DNA from: an uncultured Eubacteriales bacterium | GTDB taxonomy: Bacteria > Bacillota > Clostridia > Oscillospirales > Acutalibacteraceae | NCBI GenBank assembly: GCA_934700635.1 | Contig: CAKUXU010000026.1 | Location: 1-10,549 of the forward strand | Direction of reading: 5' to 3' | DNA: 10,549 bases | In this document: piece after piece, positions 3,533 through 7,521 of the stretch | How the letters are laid out: the number at the start of each line of letters is the position of its first letter | Numbering within the stretch: the stretch's first letter is position 1 | The notes under the pieces: model-generated | The model's database searches: none | Told to the model about the DNA's origin: nothing | Seen by the model: the letters and a program-made list of their open reading frames with translations, nothing else | Position numbers and translations under genes: made by a program

Positions 3533-4321
3533 ATGAATATACGTGAATTTTATGAATATTCAAAAAAAAATCTTCCTGATTTAGATGATCATACTTTACA
3601 AAGCGAAGTAAATATAATTTTGGAAAATTACTTAAATTTAAGCTATACAGATCTTTTTTTGAATAGAAACAAAGAAATAAGCTATGAAAATTTAGAAGTT
3701 TTAAAAGAAGCTGTTTATAAGCGTTCTCAAGGAATACCTTTACAATACATTCTAGGCCATTGGAGTTTTATGGGCATGGATTTGCTTGTGGGTGAAGGTG
3801 TATTAATTCCGAGAGAAGATACTATGGCGGTTATAGACCTTGCAATGAACTGTAAAAACTTTAGAGAAAAAAGCAATATTATTGATATTTGCAGCGGAAG
3901 TGGTTGTATTTCGCTTTCAATTGAAAAATTTTTAAAAAATAATTCTAATATCTATGCTCTTGAATATTCTTCTGATGCTTTTTGCTATCTTAAAAAAAAT
4001 ATAAAAAAAGAAAACAGTAGTGTAAAACCCATTTTTGGAGACCTTTATGAAAAATATAAAGACTTTGAAAATAATTTTTTTGATTTGATTTTGTCTAATC
4101 CTCCATATATTAAAACAAATGAAATAGAAACACTCGAAAAAGAAATTTCTTTTGAGCCTCGAGTTGCACTAGATGGTGGCCTCGATGGTCTTCATTTTTA
4201 CAGGGGTATATGTAAATTGTGGACGCCTAAATTGAAAATTGGAGGAAGTCTTGTTTTTGAGATAGGAAAAGATCAATTTCAAGAAGTACAAGAAATTATG
4301 CTTAAAAATGGATTACAATAA
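3533..4321 (+). CDS. prmC: Peptide chain release factor N5-glutamine methyltransferase, C-terminally shortened by an in-frame TAA
   Basis: PrmC (HemK) methylates the glutamine of the GGQ motif in release factors RF1 and RF2, using S-adenosylmethionine, and so supports efficient termination. The helical N-terminal substrate domain (about 1-75) ends with the family signature PLQYILG (69-75), followed by IPREDT (92-97). The Rossmann methyltransferase domain has motif I DICSGSGCI (118-126), an acidic E144 and the catalytic NPPY (189-192). The start ATG at 3533 has TTGAGGGA upstream and lies 18 nt after the kinase stop, so the gene belongs to the same operon. The product is 262 residues and ends just after MLKNGLQ. 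The normal family tail (KDLxGxxRVI) is missing from the product but is encoded in frame immediately after the TAA. Motif content indicates an active-site-complete enzyme lacking its last strand. Confidence 0.9.
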   Translation: MNIREFYEYSKKNLPDLDDHTLQSEVNIILENYLNLSYTDLFLNRNKEISYENLEVLKEAVYKRSQGIPLQYILGHWSFMGMDLLVGEGVLIPREDTMAVIDLAMNCKNFREKSNIIDICSGSGCISLSIEKFLKNNSNIYALEYSSDAFCYLKKNIKKENSSVKPIFGDLYEKYKDFENNFFDLILSNPPYIKTNEIETLEKEISFEPRVALDGGLDGLHFYRGICKLWTPKLKIGGSLVFEIGKDQFQEVQEIMLKNGLQ

Positions 4322-4418: not shown

Positions 4419-4446
4419 TTGACAAATTTATATAAATTATTATAAT
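4419..4446 (+). promoter_or_regulatory. Strong sigma-A promoter of the double-glycine peptide cluster
   Basis: TTGACA (4419-4424), a 16-nt spacer and TATAAT (4441-4446) match the consensus in both hexamers. The predicted start is about 4452-4454, leaving a leader of about 55 nt before the first peptide gene. No competing promoter is seen before the second or third gene, so all three are probably one transcript. Confidence 0.75.
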
Positions 4447-4449
4447 GAG

Positions 4450-4485
4450 ATATTGTAGATTTAGAGTATAATCTACAATATTTTT
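4450..4485 (+). promoter_or_regulatory. Perfect 12-bp dyad plus T-run in the peptide-cluster leader (operator, attenuator or upstream terminator)
   Basis: ATATTGTAGATT (4450-4461) and its exact complement AATCTACAATAT (4470-4481) flank an 8-nt loop and run into TTTTTATCTTTTT. As RNA this is a stem-loop with a U-tract, typical of an intrinsic terminator in AT-rich genomes, and it could end transcription of the prmC operon. It begins at the expected start point of the peptide promoter. It could therefore also be an operator dyad, an attenuator, or a 5' mRNA-stabilising hairpin. Confidence 0.6.
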
Positions 4486-4508
4486 ATCTTTTTAAAGGAG
4501 GTATATAT

Positions 4509-4772
4509 ATGTCTGAAAAAGAATTAAAGGCACTTGATTTTGAAGAAGAAAATGTTTCTGGTGGATTTTATTCTTCTTATGATGAGAGTCCCGAATGGAT
4601 CTTATTAGATGGTGAAGCTAAATTTAAAAAAAGGGTTCTTCATAAAGGAGAAAAAAGAGTTGATAAACATAAAGAAATTGGAAGGTATCGTACACGAAAA
4701 GAAGCTGAAGAAGCAGCTAGACAAAGAGGATTAAGTCTTAAAGCAGTAGTGCTAGACGATAAATATTGTTAA
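4509..4772 (+). CDS. Double-glycine leader peptide, paralogue 1 (87 aa)
   Basis: The N-terminus starts MSEKELKALD and ends in VSGG (16-19), the form of a type-2 (double-glycine) leader cut by a peptidase-containing ABC exporter (PCAT/C39). Cleavage would release a 68-residue cargo starting FYSSYDES. The cargo is highly charged, with Lys/Arg in the middle and a predicted amphipathic helix TRKEAEEAARQRGLSLK near residues 62-78, which is shared with the two downstream paralogues. The only cysteine is the last residue. AAAGGAGGT lies 6 nt before the ATG, an ideal ribosome site. The cargo diverges from paralogues 2 and 3 outside the leader and helix. I do not recognise a named bacteriocin, pheromone or modified-peptide family. 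No exporter or maturation enzyme is present in the window. Roles as antimicrobial, signal or other secreted small protein are all open. Confidence 0.72.
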   Translation: MSEKELKALDFEEENVSGGFYSSYDESPEWILLDGEAKFKKRVLHKGEKRVDKHKEIGRYRTRKEAEEAARQRGLSLKAVVLDDKYC

Positions 4773-4785
4773 AGGAGGAATTAAT

Positions 4786-5112
4786 ATGTCCGAAAAAGAA
4801 TTAGAAGTAATTGATGATAAAGGTGAAAAAGATGTTTCTGGCGGTTGTATAGGTGTGCAAAAAATATGCAGCGGTACACCTTTAAACAGTATGACCGAAG
4901 TTCGATACTGTGTTTATGACAGAGATTATAGGCGTAGCGATGCAGTACCTATACTTGAGGGATTTAAAACTTTGGAAGAAGCTAAAAAAGCAGCCGAAGA
5001 AAGAGGTCTCAGTACCGAATGGAGACATAAATTGTTAAGTAAAGATTTGTTCAGTAAGAAAATGGCAAAAGAAGAAAAAAAAGCATGGGAAGAAATTATG
5101 AAGAATAAATAA
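4786..5112 (+). CDS. Double-glycine leader peptide, paralogue 2 (108 aa)
   Basis: The leader is MSEKELEVID through VSGG (17-20), the same type as in its neighbours, and leaves an 88-residue cargo starting CIGVQKIC. The cargo has YCVYDRDYRR, then LEGFKTLEEAKKAAEERGLSTEW near residues 72-95, then a long Lys/Glu-rich helical tail. It has three cysteines (two in CIGVQKIC, one in YCVY), so a disulfide or a Cys-based modification is possible. The pattern suggests a small strand-strand-helix module followed by a charged helix. AAAGGAGG overlaps the stop codon of paralogue 1 (13 nt between genes), so the pair is cotranscribed. It shares most with paralogue 3, notably the CIG start and the GLST element. 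Function not recognised. Confidence 0.72.
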   Translation: MSEKELEVIDDKGEKDVSGGCIGVQKICSGTPLNSMTEVRYCVYDRDYRRSDAVPILEGFKTLEEAKKAAEERGLSTEWRHKLLSKDLFSKKMAKEEKKAWEEIMKNK

Positions 5113-5158
5113 AGTGATGAAATCATTATGATAAAATATTTTCAAAGGGGGAGTTTAT

Positions 5159-5503
5159 GTGTCAGAAAAAAATTTAAAATCAATTGATTCTAAAGATTCA
5201 GAAAAAGTTTCCGGAGGTTGCATTGGTGATGAACTTGTGTACACAGGTAGTAGAAGATATGGAACATACAAGAGAAGATATAGAGTTTATAATGATGATG
5301 ATTACTGCGACAATACACCAGTAGCAGAGGGGATTGAAACATTAGAAGAAGCTAAAAAGGAAGCAGAAAGAAGAGGACTAAGTACTAAGTGGAAACGTGA
5401 TCAATTCCCTTTAGCTTATAAAGCAGAACAACAAGTTATGGCAGATATGCAAATGGAAGAAGTGCAAAAATTAAAGAAAAAAAATTTAGATTCTACCTTC
5501 TAA
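5159..5503 (+). CDS. Double-glycine leader peptide, paralogue 3 (114 aa)
   Basis: The leader is MSEKNLKSID through VSGG (17-20), with a 94-residue cargo starting CIGDELVY. The middle part RRYRVYNDDDYCDN is followed by the conserved AEGIETLEEAKKEAERRGLSTKW and a Gln/Lys-rich helical tail ending in STF. There are two cysteines (21 and one in the DDDYC region). The start is GTG at 5159. The ATG at 5157 is in another frame, whereas the GTG restores the MSEK leader shared with the paralogues, with AAAGGGGGAG 5 nt upstream. The gap after paralogue 2 is 46 nt with a small TGAT-GAA-ATCA dyad and no terminator, so it belongs to the same transcript. The three genes look like tandem duplicates that diverged mainly in their cargo. 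No transporter is adjacent. Function not recognised. Confidence 0.72.
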   Translation: MSEKNLKSIDSKDSEKVSGGCIGDELVYTGSRRYGTYKRRYRVYNDDDYCDNTPVAEGIETLEEAKKEAERRGLSTKWKRDQFPLAYKAEQQVMADMQMEEVQKLKKKNLDSTF

Positions 5504-5513
5504 TATAGAATTT

Positions 5514-5546
5514 AAAAAAGCATTGTTTTTTAGACAATGCTTTTTT
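5514..5546. terminator. Bidirectional intrinsic terminator between the peptide cluster and pspC
   Basis: AAAAAAGCATTGT (5514-5526) and ACAATGCTTTTTT (5534-5546) form a 13-bp stem with a 7-nt loop. A-runs on one side and T-runs on the other make it work in both directions. It ends the plus-strand peptide transcript and the minus-strand pspC transcript, whose stop codon touches it. Confidence 0.9.
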
Positions 5547-5736
5547 ATTCTTCTTTTTGTATGGGCATTACAAGAGCACATAAAAGGTATGCAATAAAGC
5601 CAAATCCAAATATTAAGGAAGAAATTATCCATATTATTCTTATTAGTGTTGAGTCAATTTCAAAATATTCAGCAATTCCTCCGCAAACACCAAATATTTT
5701 TTTATCTTTTTTTGATCGAGTTAATCGTTTAATCAT
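5545..5736 (-). CDS. PspC-domain membrane protein
   Basis: A 63-residue stand-alone PspC domain. It has the basic, Gly-containing start MIKRLTRSKKDKKIFGVCGGIAEYF-type motif (KxxGVCGGIAEYF around residues 12-24), then DSTLIRIIWIISSLIFGFGFIAYLLCALVMP, which contains one long or two short membrane segments (about 31-57). Proteins of this family are linked to envelope and phage-shock stress responses, though their activity in Bacillota is poorly defined. The ATG at 5736 has GGAGG at good spacing. A separate promoter (5775-5803) and the shared terminator make it a single-gene transcript, independent of the gerW gene upstream. Confidence 0.9.
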   Translation of the reverse strand: MIKRLTRSKKDKKIFGVCGGIAEYFEIDSTLIRIIWIISSLIFGFGFIAYLLCALVMPIQKEE

Positions 5737-6194: not shown

Positions 6195-6791
6195 TCACAA
6201 ATTAATTTTTGATATAGTTTTTAGTTTTTTCGAGTATTTTAAAAAACTTAAAATTAAATAAATCAGTTTGAATTTTATTTCCAAGTTTAAAATAAAAGAA
6301 TTTTTACTTTCAGTAAAGTCGGGAATCACTTTAACTTGGTAGTTTTGCGGGCGTTTTAAAGAGTATAGAATACCAAATGAAGAATAAACCAAAGCCGAAG
6401 CTTGTCCATATGCTAAAGCTGTATTGAAAGAATTTTCATTCCCGACTTTTAAAATAAAAGTTAAATCATTTATTTCCGTTTTTTCTAAAATATCTTTTAA
6501 TAATTTCCCTGAAACACTAAAAAAATTATAAACGGCTTTTATTGAATTTATAATTCCTTGCTTTTTTACTTTAGAAAAAATACTTTCGGAGTTGCTATTA
6601 TTTGAAAGATTCATAGAATTATTTTCTATATTTTTCTTTTTTTCATTGCTATACAAAGTAATTTTTAGCATAAATATTTTTATTTGAATTTTTAAATTCT
6701 TGTGTTGACTTATCTTTAGTTTAATAGGAATAAATAATATGACTGTCAAAAAAATTATTAAAATCAATAAAGTGAATAATATAGCATACAT
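6195..6791 (-). CDS. DUF2953 domain membrane-anchored protein (YtfI-like)
   Basis: A 198-residue protein with one N-terminal membrane segment (about 3-23) followed by PIKLKIS and a long beta-rich soluble part. The central region (residues about 55-75) is Asn/Ser/Lys-rich and low in complexity. The C-terminal half holds LTFILKVGNENSFNTALAYGQASALVYSSFGIL, a G-x-x-x-A-x-x-x-G pattern typical of DUF2953, and then PDFTESKNSF. Family function is unknown. The gene constantly neighbours gerW, and a link to forespore or spore-envelope formation is inferred from that. The ATG at 6791 has GAGGG only 4 nt upstream, a rather tight spacing. A sigma-F-like promoter lies just upstream. Confidence 0.8.
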   Translation of the reverse strand: MYAILFTLLILIIFLTVILFIPIKLKISQHKNLKIQIKIFMLKITLYSNEKKKNIENNSMNLSNNSNSESIFSKVKKQGIINSIKAVYNFFSVSGKLLKDILEKTEINDLTFILKVGNENSFNTALAYGQASALVYSSFGILYSLKRPQNYQVKVIPDFTESKNSFILNLEIKFKLIYLILSFLKYSKKLKTISKINL

Positions 6792-6821
6792 ATTGCCCTC
6801 AATAAATAATAAGATTATTTA

Positions 6822-6851
6822 GATTATATCCATAATCAGTCGATTATATGC
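6822..6851 (-). promoter_or_regulatory. Candidate forespore (sigma-F-like) promoter for DUF2953-gerW
   Basis: On the minus strand, GCATA (6851..6847), a 15-nt spacer and GGATATAATC (6831..6822) resemble the sigma-F pattern GYWTA-N15/16-GGNRANANTW, with two mismatches in the -10. The same stretch also reads as TGCATA-N18-TATAAT, so a sigma-A or sigma-G reading is possible. The start would be about 25-30 nt before the ATG. Confidence 0.35.
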
Positions 6852-6861
6852 ACCGCTAAAG

Positions 6862-7521
6862 TTAAAAATTTAATGGTATATGAGTTATTTTTATCACGAA
6901 ATTATAAAGAGCTTTCTCAATAGTTATCAATGGATAATCAAAAAATCCAAATAAAAACAAAATAAGAATTACCCATATAATAACTCTAATATTTTTATAG
7001 TACGCTTCAATAAATCTTTCAGGTATAAATGCTTCTAAAATTTTAAACCCGTCAAATGATGGAATAGGGAATAAGTTAAAAGTGGCAAGTAATGCGTTTA
7101 TTGATATGTAATAGGAAAGTAAATCTGCAAAAGCCATAGCTATATCTTCAGAAGGCATAAATTGCGTTAAATTAAGTAAAAGCCCTCCTACAAGCGCAGC
7201 TACTATATTTGAAACAGGACCCGCTAATGAAACAAGAGCACTGTCTCTTTTAGGATTCTTAAAATTTCTTGTGTAGATTGCAACTGGTTTGGCCCATCCA
7301 AAATCGAAAAGAAGCATACATACTGCTCCCCAAACAGAAAAATGAGCAACAGGGTTTAGTGTTAATCTCCCTTGTAATCTCGGAGTATCATCTCCTAATT
7401 TACATGCTACCCAAGCATGAGAAAATTCATGTAGTGGAAGTACTACAAAAATTATAAAAAGTATTGCTAATATTCTTAAAACAAGATCGTAAAAAGTTAT
7501 TCCAGGTTGTAAAAACCACAT
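6862..7521 (-). CDS. Site-2-type intramembrane zinc metalloprotease (M50 family)
   Basis: A 219-residue polytopic protein of the M50B/YwhC-like group. Zinc ligands H31 and H35 with catalytic E32 lie in LPLHEFSHAWVACKLGD at the end of the first membrane helix. The third ligand is D157 in NLFPIPSFDG (149-158), close to the family NxxPIPPLDG. GRLTLNPVAHF (51-61) and SLAGPVSNIVAAL (98-110) are the other conserved blocks. Further membrane helices lie at about 104-120, 136-156 and 178-195. All catalytic residues are present. No PDZ domain is found, unlike RseP. The substrate is unknown; a sporulation or envelope role is only suggested by neighbours. GAGGTG precedes the ATG at 7521, and the gene follows spoIID by 45 nt. 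Confidence 0.92.
   Translation of the reverse strand: MWFLQPGITFYDLVLRILAILFIIFVVLPLHEFSHAWVACKLGDDTPRLQGRLTLNPVAHFSVWGAVCMLLFDFGWAKPVAIYTRNFKNPKRDSALVSLAGPVSNIVAALVGGLLLNLTQFMPSEDIAMAFADLLSYYISINALLATFNLFPIPSFDGFKILEAFIPERFIEAYYKNIRVIIWVILILFLFGFFDYPLITIEKALYNFVIKITHIPLNF

What the first reader, a model, noticed from the sequence alone, without database searches (positions are those of the whole stretch)
4509..5503. Three tandem double-glycine leader peptides with long, unfamiliar cargo
Three adjacent genes share a near-identical MSEKxLxxxD...VSGG leader but release cargos of 68, 88 and 94 residues. These are longer and more charged than typical class II bacteriocins. The cargo looks like a small folded module rather than a pore-forming peptide. 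They have a strong dedicated promoter and a bidirectional terminator, so this is a self-contained expression cassette. Known: VSGG-type leaders direct export and cleavage by PCAT/C39 ABC exporters. Inference: the cassette makes a family of secreted small proteins of unknown role (antimicrobial, signal or surface). No exporter is within the window.
Basis: partly seen in the sequence, partly recalled or inferred. Interest (0 to 1): 0.8.

Follow-up and report, generated by a model that had tools for sequence, protein, structure and literature searches.

The report
Exported small-protein gene triplet
An uncultured Clostridia-like bacterium carries three neighbouring genes for small, soluble proteins that wear a detachable export tag; relatives carry scattered copies of the same fast-changing protein family together with a matching exporter, so this looks like a real secreted-protein family whose job is unknown.

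Summary
Confirmed. Window 4509-5503 holds three co-directional genes with near-identical 19-20-residue leaders ending VSGG and charged cargos of 68, 88 and 94 residues, behind a 12/12 promoter and before a two-way terminator. No library names them. The window's gene order recurs in two relatives: G187 has one GG gene at this spot, G382 a decayed remnant, so the triplet is probably a local amplification. A GG-leader family with the same motif gives 25 matches in 12 of 398 family genomes, 11 of them 1.0-1.4 Mb. All 12 have a C39 exporter, against 54 of the other 386; it is NHLM/NHLP-type over the curated cut-off in 11 of 12. Cargos change faster than most compared genes but stay under purifying selection. 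Best reading: unmodified small proteins exported by an NHLM-type transporter; the role is a guess (matrix or cell-interaction first, bacteriocin second). Against: no hydrophobic residue at -7 in the window leaders (0 of 3), no genome held for the window, so its own exporter is unseen, and a weak structural model.

The parts
4419..4446 (+). Promoter, TTGACA-16-TATAAT, 12 of 12
   Evidence: about 0.013 perfect sites expected per window by approximate shuffling, two found
4450..4481 (+). Perfect 12-bp inverted repeat directly after the -10: predicted stem-loop at the 5' end of the mRNA (or operator)
   Evidence: energy -11.5, z -5.0
4494..4501 (+). Ribosome-binding site AAAGGAGG of GG1
   Evidence: sequence
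4509..4772 (+). GG1: leader 4509-4565 (19 aa), cargo 4566-4769 (68 aa)
   Evidence: cargo matches a profile of relatives' cargos alone, 25.1 bits
4786..5112 (+). GG2: leader 4786-4845 (20 aa), cargo 4846-5109 (88 aa), first mature residue Cys
   Evidence: cargo-only profile 20.1 bits
5159..5503 (+). GG3 (GTG start): leader 5159-5218 (20 aa), cargo 5219-5500 (94 aa), first mature residue Cys
   Evidence: precursor 46% identical to GG2; alone not found by the relatives' cargo profile (6.8 bits, own best shuffle 8.8)
5513..5547 (.). Terminator-like hairpin readable on both strands, shared with the convergent PspC gene (5545-5736, -)

Best explanation
The three genes form one transcription unit that makes precursors of small soluble proteins. 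The leader ending in GG is read by a C39 peptidase-containing ABC transporter of the NHLM/NHLP type encoded elsewhere in the chromosome, cut after GG, and the 68-94-residue cargo is released outside, probably unmodified. The cargo belongs to a lineage-specific family (strand-strand-helix core with TxxEAxxxAxxxGxS, in relatives often followed by a short strand and a helix) whose genes are scattered, sometimes in tandem, many with their own strong promoter and a 5' mRNA hairpin. SHOWN by computation: the genes, the family, its synteny and its co-occurrence with the exporter. INFERRED: export and cleavage. GUESSED: the role outside the cell. My first choice is an abundant matrix or cell-surface interaction protein, like the GG-motif EbfG proteins of Synechococcus (about 40%), then an antagonistic protein (about 25%), a host- or protist-directed protein (about 20%), a signal (about 15%).
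For: Leaders: over 31 distinct leader ends from 45 precursors (window included), LIVMF at -4 in 29 and at -12 in 29, positions within the leader helix that PCAT peptidases read (PMC6959990, passages). Same locus in relatives: lipoprotein-like ORF, RR, HK, PrmC, [GG], PspC, GerW, DUF2953, M50, SpoIID, TM in the window, L111 (one intact GG gene, 6747-7004) and L174 (remnant). Family: 25 matches at E<=1e-3 in 12 of 398 genomes (G139 and G052 supplied rows of that profile, so 10 of the 12 are independent; 2 of the 25 are broken). Cargo homology without leaders, profile without window rows: GG1 25.1, GG2 20.1, P0003 22.2 bits; best of 2000 shuffled cargos 9.9; no unrelated ORF of 968 in the 14 rows printed. 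Exporter: C39 at E<=1e-15 in 12 of 12 family-bearing genomes, 54 of the other 386 (Fisher p 2e-10). TIGR03796 over its cut-off of 853 bits in 11 of 12, the twelfth (G243) at 837; in 14 named control genomes 0 over it. HlyD-like, PCAT and second ABC gene side by side in 11 of these 12 genomes. Selection: cargo dN/dS 0.46 and 0.44 in two ortholog pairs, leader 0.06 in the one pair where measurable.
Against: No genome is held for the window, so its exporter is not seen. The residue at -7, where Leu mattered for binding in PCAT1, is E, E and S in the window (0 of 3 hydrophobic) and LIVMF in only 15 of 31 family leaders; GG1 has Ala at -12. No family GG gene was found by script beside the exporter in 10 of 11 exporter loci read. 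G644, which has a cargo of this kind, gave no full-length TIGR03796 match. The first profile contains the leader, so the exporter association may in part reflect GG leaders of any kind; kinship is not corrected. In the cargo-only search G339, G283 and G126 gave no match. GG3 alone is not recognised. The model is weak (pLDDT 64-66) and matches nothing convincingly. No data on expression, cleavage or activity.
Confidence: 0.7

Rival explanations
1. The triplet is a multi-peptide class II bacteriocin: three exported antimicrobial peptides acting on competitors.
For: GG leaders, tandem precursors, C39 exporters in relatives; cargos evolve faster than most compared genes; a near-threshold bacteriocin-leader hit in a relative (TIGR01847 15.5 against a cut-off of 15.7).
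Against: Cargos long, hydrophilic, 38-44% charged, no membrane-type stretch. No immunity-like gene recognised: the flanking PrmC and PspC are conserved genes. No bacteriocin model hits the window proteins. dN/dS stays below 1.
Confidence: 0.2
2. The precursors are RiPP substrates: the cargo is chemically modified (for example by a radical SAM enzyme) before export through the NHLM system.
For: The exporter type is that of NHLP/Nif11 RiPP systems; in G644 a cargo of this kind sits on a longer, Nif11-resembling leader near a SPASM-domain protein; Nif11-leader genes follow the exporter in G283 and G052.
Against: No modification enzyme recognised in the window or, by reading ORFs, beside L110, L111 and L117. 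The long, domain-like cargos do not look like short hypervariable cores rich in Cys, Ser and Thr.
Confidence: 0.12
3. The GG leader is not an export signal here: the proteins are cytoplasmic (for instance DUF2188-like) and the motif is a family relic.
For: Weak likeness of relatives to DUF2188 (20.4 bits, cut-off 22) and to NDUFS4-type subunits; non-hydrophobic -7; 3 of 12 new cargo-only matches without GG.
Against: 9 of 12 new cargo-only matches keep GG in the same frame, 6 of them intact; leader more conserved than cargo in the measurable pair; C39 exporter in 12 of 12 genomes. DUF2188 gives no match over its cut-off in 12 genomes.
Confidence: 0.12

Closest known systems
NHLM/NHLP export system with NHLP and Nif11 leader precursors (Haft et al. 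2010, author recalled; PMC2887384, passages read)
   Same: Exporter of the relatives is this type: TIGR03796 over cut-off in 11 of 12 genomes, TIGR03797 over cut-off in G187 and G283
   Different: Window leaders are short plain GG leaders with no Nif11/NHLP hit; no modification enzyme recognised; cargo a longer soluble module rather than a short hypervariable core; the HlyD-like protein of G187 is short and below its cut-off (95 of 156 bits)
EbfG1-4 with PteB in Synechococcus elongatus (PMC4997328, passages read)
   Same: Tandem small GG-motif proteins, mature 6-7 kDa, no known domain, exported with the help of a C39 transporter
   Different: No sequence kinship tested or claimed; their biofilm role is shown, the role here is unknown
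PCAT1 with substrate CtA (organism Clostridium thermocellum recalled; PMC6959990, passages read)
   Same: GG leader plus a long cargo (residues 25-90) handled by a C39 ABC transporter
   Different: CtA cargo described there as unstructured; Leu at -7 present; no kinship tested
Class II bacteriocins with GG leader (Pfam Bacteriocin_IIc, TIGR01847)
   Same: Leader type and exporter class
   Different: Cargo length, charge, lack of a hydrophobic stretch, no immunity gene recognised

Membership tests
PCAT (C39) substrates with double-glycine leader | GG at the end of a short leader, hydrophobic -4 and -12 | tested here: met
   Window: -4 V in 3 of 3; -12 I in 2 of 3 (GG1 has Ala at -12, Leu at -11); 31 family leader ends 29 and 29
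PCAT (C39) substrates with double-glycine leader | Hydrophobic residue at -7 | tested here: not met
   Window 0 of 3; family 15 of 31
PCAT (C39) substrates with double-glycine leader | C39 exporter in the same genome | not testable with these tools
   No genome held; 12 of 12 family-bearing relatives have one
NHLM/NHLP-Nif11 systems | HlyD-like + C39-ABC (TIGR03796) + second ABC (TIGR03797) genes | tested here: inconclusive
   Relatives: TIGR03796 over cut-off in 11 of 12, three genes together in 11 of 12; window genome unseen; G644 no full-length match
NHLM/NHLP-Nif11 systems | Precursor with Nif11 or NHLP leader | tested here: not met
   No NCBIfam hit for the three window precursors at E<=1
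Class II bacteriocins | Short amphipathic or hydrophobic core and neighbouring immunity gene | tested here: not met
   Cargo properties; no immunity-like neighbour recognised
DUF2188 (PF09954) | Match over the curated cut-off | tested here: not met
   Best 20.5 bits, cut-off 22, in G139; 0 of 12 genomes over it; no window hit
NDUFS4-like fold | Shared fold with solved members | tested here: inconclusive

The most novel reading that the evidence does not exclude
A clade of small-genome Clostridia has turned an NHLM-type exporter, known from modified peptide natural products, into a general outlet for lineage-specific families of unmodified small folded proteins (strand-strand-helix and zinc-ribbon-like cargos), with the same cargo module found behind short GG leaders and, in one order-level relative, behind a longer Nif11-resembling leader, and many genes in their own expression cassette with a strong promoter and a 5' hairpin.
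Probability: 0.45. Interest if true: 0.68.

Novelty: new variant of a known kind. Interest (0 to 1): 0.52.

Why it matters
If right, NHLM exporters handle small folded proteins as well as modified peptides, and uncultured small-genome Clostridia carry secreted-protein families that Pfam, NCBIfam, PHROGs and PADLOC do not name. The family offers direct tests: defined precursors, defined exporters, and a leader variant (no hydrophobic -7) that probes C39 recognition.

Full report
WHAT IS THERE. The window is a 10,549-base contig for which no genome is held. Three ORFs on the + strand at 4509-4772, 4786-5112 and 5159-5503 (GTG start) encode 87, 108 and 114 residues. They share 21 invariant columns, 10 in the leader, which ends VSGG, and 11 in the cargo. 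The cargos are 68, 88 and 94 residues, 38-44% charged, without any membrane-like stretch. Codon usage favours the annotated frames. A 12/12 sigma-70 type promoter ends 62 bases before GG1, no + strand promoter-like site was listed inside 4509-5503, and a hairpin readable as terminator on both strands follows GG3. The gaps between the genes are 13 and 46 bases. They look like one operon.

NEIGHBOURS. Upstream: a lipoprotein-like ORF (my reading), a response regulator, a histidine kinase and PrmC; downstream on the other strand PspC, GerW, DUF2953, M50 and SpoIID, then a TM protein (my reading) and GAPDH on the + strand. Two relatives, G187 (L111) and G382 (L174), have the same order. Identity to the window (G187/G382): response regulator 94/91%, kinase 66/66, PrmC 52/48, PspC 59/67, GerW 78/73, M50 60/56, SpoIID 61/59, but also TM protein 47/48, lipoprotein-like 37/38 and DUF2953 33/33. 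The G187 GG protein is 28% identical to GG2 in an alignment; tblastn of the window GG proteins found nothing in these loci at E<=1e-3, and the reverse search found only the leader and a few residues after it (25 residues, 48%, E 0.002). So the GG protein is the least conserved of the locus, though two neighbours come close. G187 has one intact GG gene between PrmC and PspC (L111:6747-7004); G382 has a remnant without start codon or full leader. One ancestral gene with amplification in the window lineage is the simplest reading.

FAMILY. A profile of the window and first relatives (A3) gave 25 matches at E<=1e-3 in 12 of 398 genomes drawn from one family; at E<=0.1 there were 56 genomes, the additional ones mostly short matches in unrelated or long frames. 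G139 and G052 supplied rows of A3. By size, 11 of the 12 are 1.0-1.4 Mb and one is 1.8 Mb; completeness is not told, so missing sequence may play a part. G139 has three genes in tandem, G109 two, G187 two in tandem besides others. At order level 2 of 394 genomes matched A4 at E<=1e-3, one of them G139 itself. The protein database gave 20 proteins with A4 at E<=0.01. Because A3 and A4 contain the leader, cargos were also tested alone. A profile of 16 relatives' cargos, without window rows, recognised GG1 (25.1 bits), GG2 (20.1) and P0003 (22.2); the best of 2000 shuffled cargos scored 9.9; GG3 was not recognised (6.8). A cargo-only search (A6) of 20 chosen genomes gave 24 matches in 11 genomes. 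12 of the 24 are rows of A6. Of the 12 others, read, six have an intact GG leader (G077, G109 twice, G382 twice, G187), three keep GG but are broken (the G382 remnant and two in G052:C12), and three have no GG (G052:C21, G164:C20, G052:C22:5238). G339, G283 and G126 gave no cargo-only match, so their membership rests partly on the leader.

EXPORTER. C39 peptidase at E<=1e-15 is present in 66 of 398 genomes, among them all 12 family-bearing ones (Fisher p 2e-10, not corrected for kinship). A profile with the leader could pick up any GG peptide, but the nine of these genomes that also match by cargo alone are all in the C39 list. TIGR03796 (NHLM C39-ABC) passes its cut-off in 11 of the 12; G243 is just below (837 of 853 bits); none of 14 named controls passes. 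In G187 the second ABC gene passes TIGR03797 (727, cut-off 709), and a short HlyD-like protein hits TIGR03794 below cut-off (95 of 156). The three genes lie together in 11 of the 12 genomes; for G126 only a fragment was read. In G283 and G052 the operon is followed by Nif11-leader genes with GG, at least one over cut-off in each. In G644, from the same order, one cargo of this kind (A4 match, E 5e-12) and by eye a second sit on longer leaders that resemble Nif11 (one hits TIGR03798 at 15 of 32 bits, the other not at all), near a SPASM-domain protein and a Cys-rich GG peptide. G644 shows no full-length TIGR03796 match, so its exporter is unknown; its C39 content was not searched. A cargo behind two kinds of leader, both ending GG, suggests that the leader is a separable export tag.

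LEADER. Over 31 distinct leader ends, LIVMF stands at -4 in 29, at -12 in 29 and at -7 in 15. For PCAT1, changing Leu at -7 or -12 lowered binding (PMC6959990, passages). The window leaders have E, E and S at -7, so they are not canonical. Relatives such as L111 and L118 share this. Whether their transporters tolerate it is open.

EVOLUTION. In two ortholog pairs the cargo has dN 0.10 and dN/dS 0.46 (G260/G077), and dN 0.23 and 0.44 (G283/G126); whole genes 0.28 and 0.26. The leader is at 0.06 in the first pair and not measurable in the second. Of 35 other gene pairs compared in the same genomes, 31 are at 0.015-0.18, three at 0.28-0.36 (two of them DUF2953) and one at 0.95 on almost no change. 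With 54-60 cargo codons the estimates are rough. They fit real genes under purifying selection with a fast-changing cargo.

EXPRESSION. At the window promoter a perfect 12-bp inverted repeat starts right after the -10. Several family genes elsewhere have a hairpin at the same place with another sequence; two gene pairs show two both-sided changes each that keep pairing. Against 56 control promoters the GG genes have stronger 5' folds (12 of 22 against 10 of 56 with z below -1.5). A 5' hairpin that protects the mRNA is the likely meaning (inference); an operator is not excluded.

MECHANISM AND RANK. The best-supported account is export through an NHLM-type C39 transporter and release of an unmodified small protein. 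Export is inferred from leader, family and exporter co-occurrence; the role is a guess. Among known systems EbfG1-4 with PteB (PMC4997328) are the nearest working analogy; NHLP/Nif11 systems (PMC2887384) are the nearest in exporter type. I rate it a new variant of a known kind.

Noticed in passing
window 4319-4321: An in-frame TAA interrupts prmC near its end; the frame goes on with residues that align to the PrmC C-termini of both relatives. Nonsense change or assembly error not decided.
   Followed up: partly
L116, L112, L123, L101, L218:993-1244: Other GG-leader ORFs in these genomes carry Cys-rich, zinc-ribbon-like cargos.
   Followed up: partly
L218/L221 (G644:C185): A cargo of this family on a longer, Nif11-resembling leader near a SPASM-domain protein close to the contig start.
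   Followed up: partly
L184 10086-13919, L186 12250-14979: Runs of Nif11-leader and GG genes, several with Gly/Asn-rich tails, directly after an NHLM operon.
   Followed up: no
window 4450-4481 and upstream of L118, L119, L171, L172, L181: Short hairpin at the predicted transcript start of many GG genes, pairing kept while sequence differs.
   Followed up: yes
L187, L188, L189: The exporter operon lies beside V-type ATPase-like genes in G187, G260 and G077 (gene names read from the sequence, not from a family search).
   Followed up: no
L174 5170-5448 (-), L228, L238, L247, L252: Broken or partial copies of GG genes in G382, G052 and G164, suggesting turnover of the family.
   Followed up: partly
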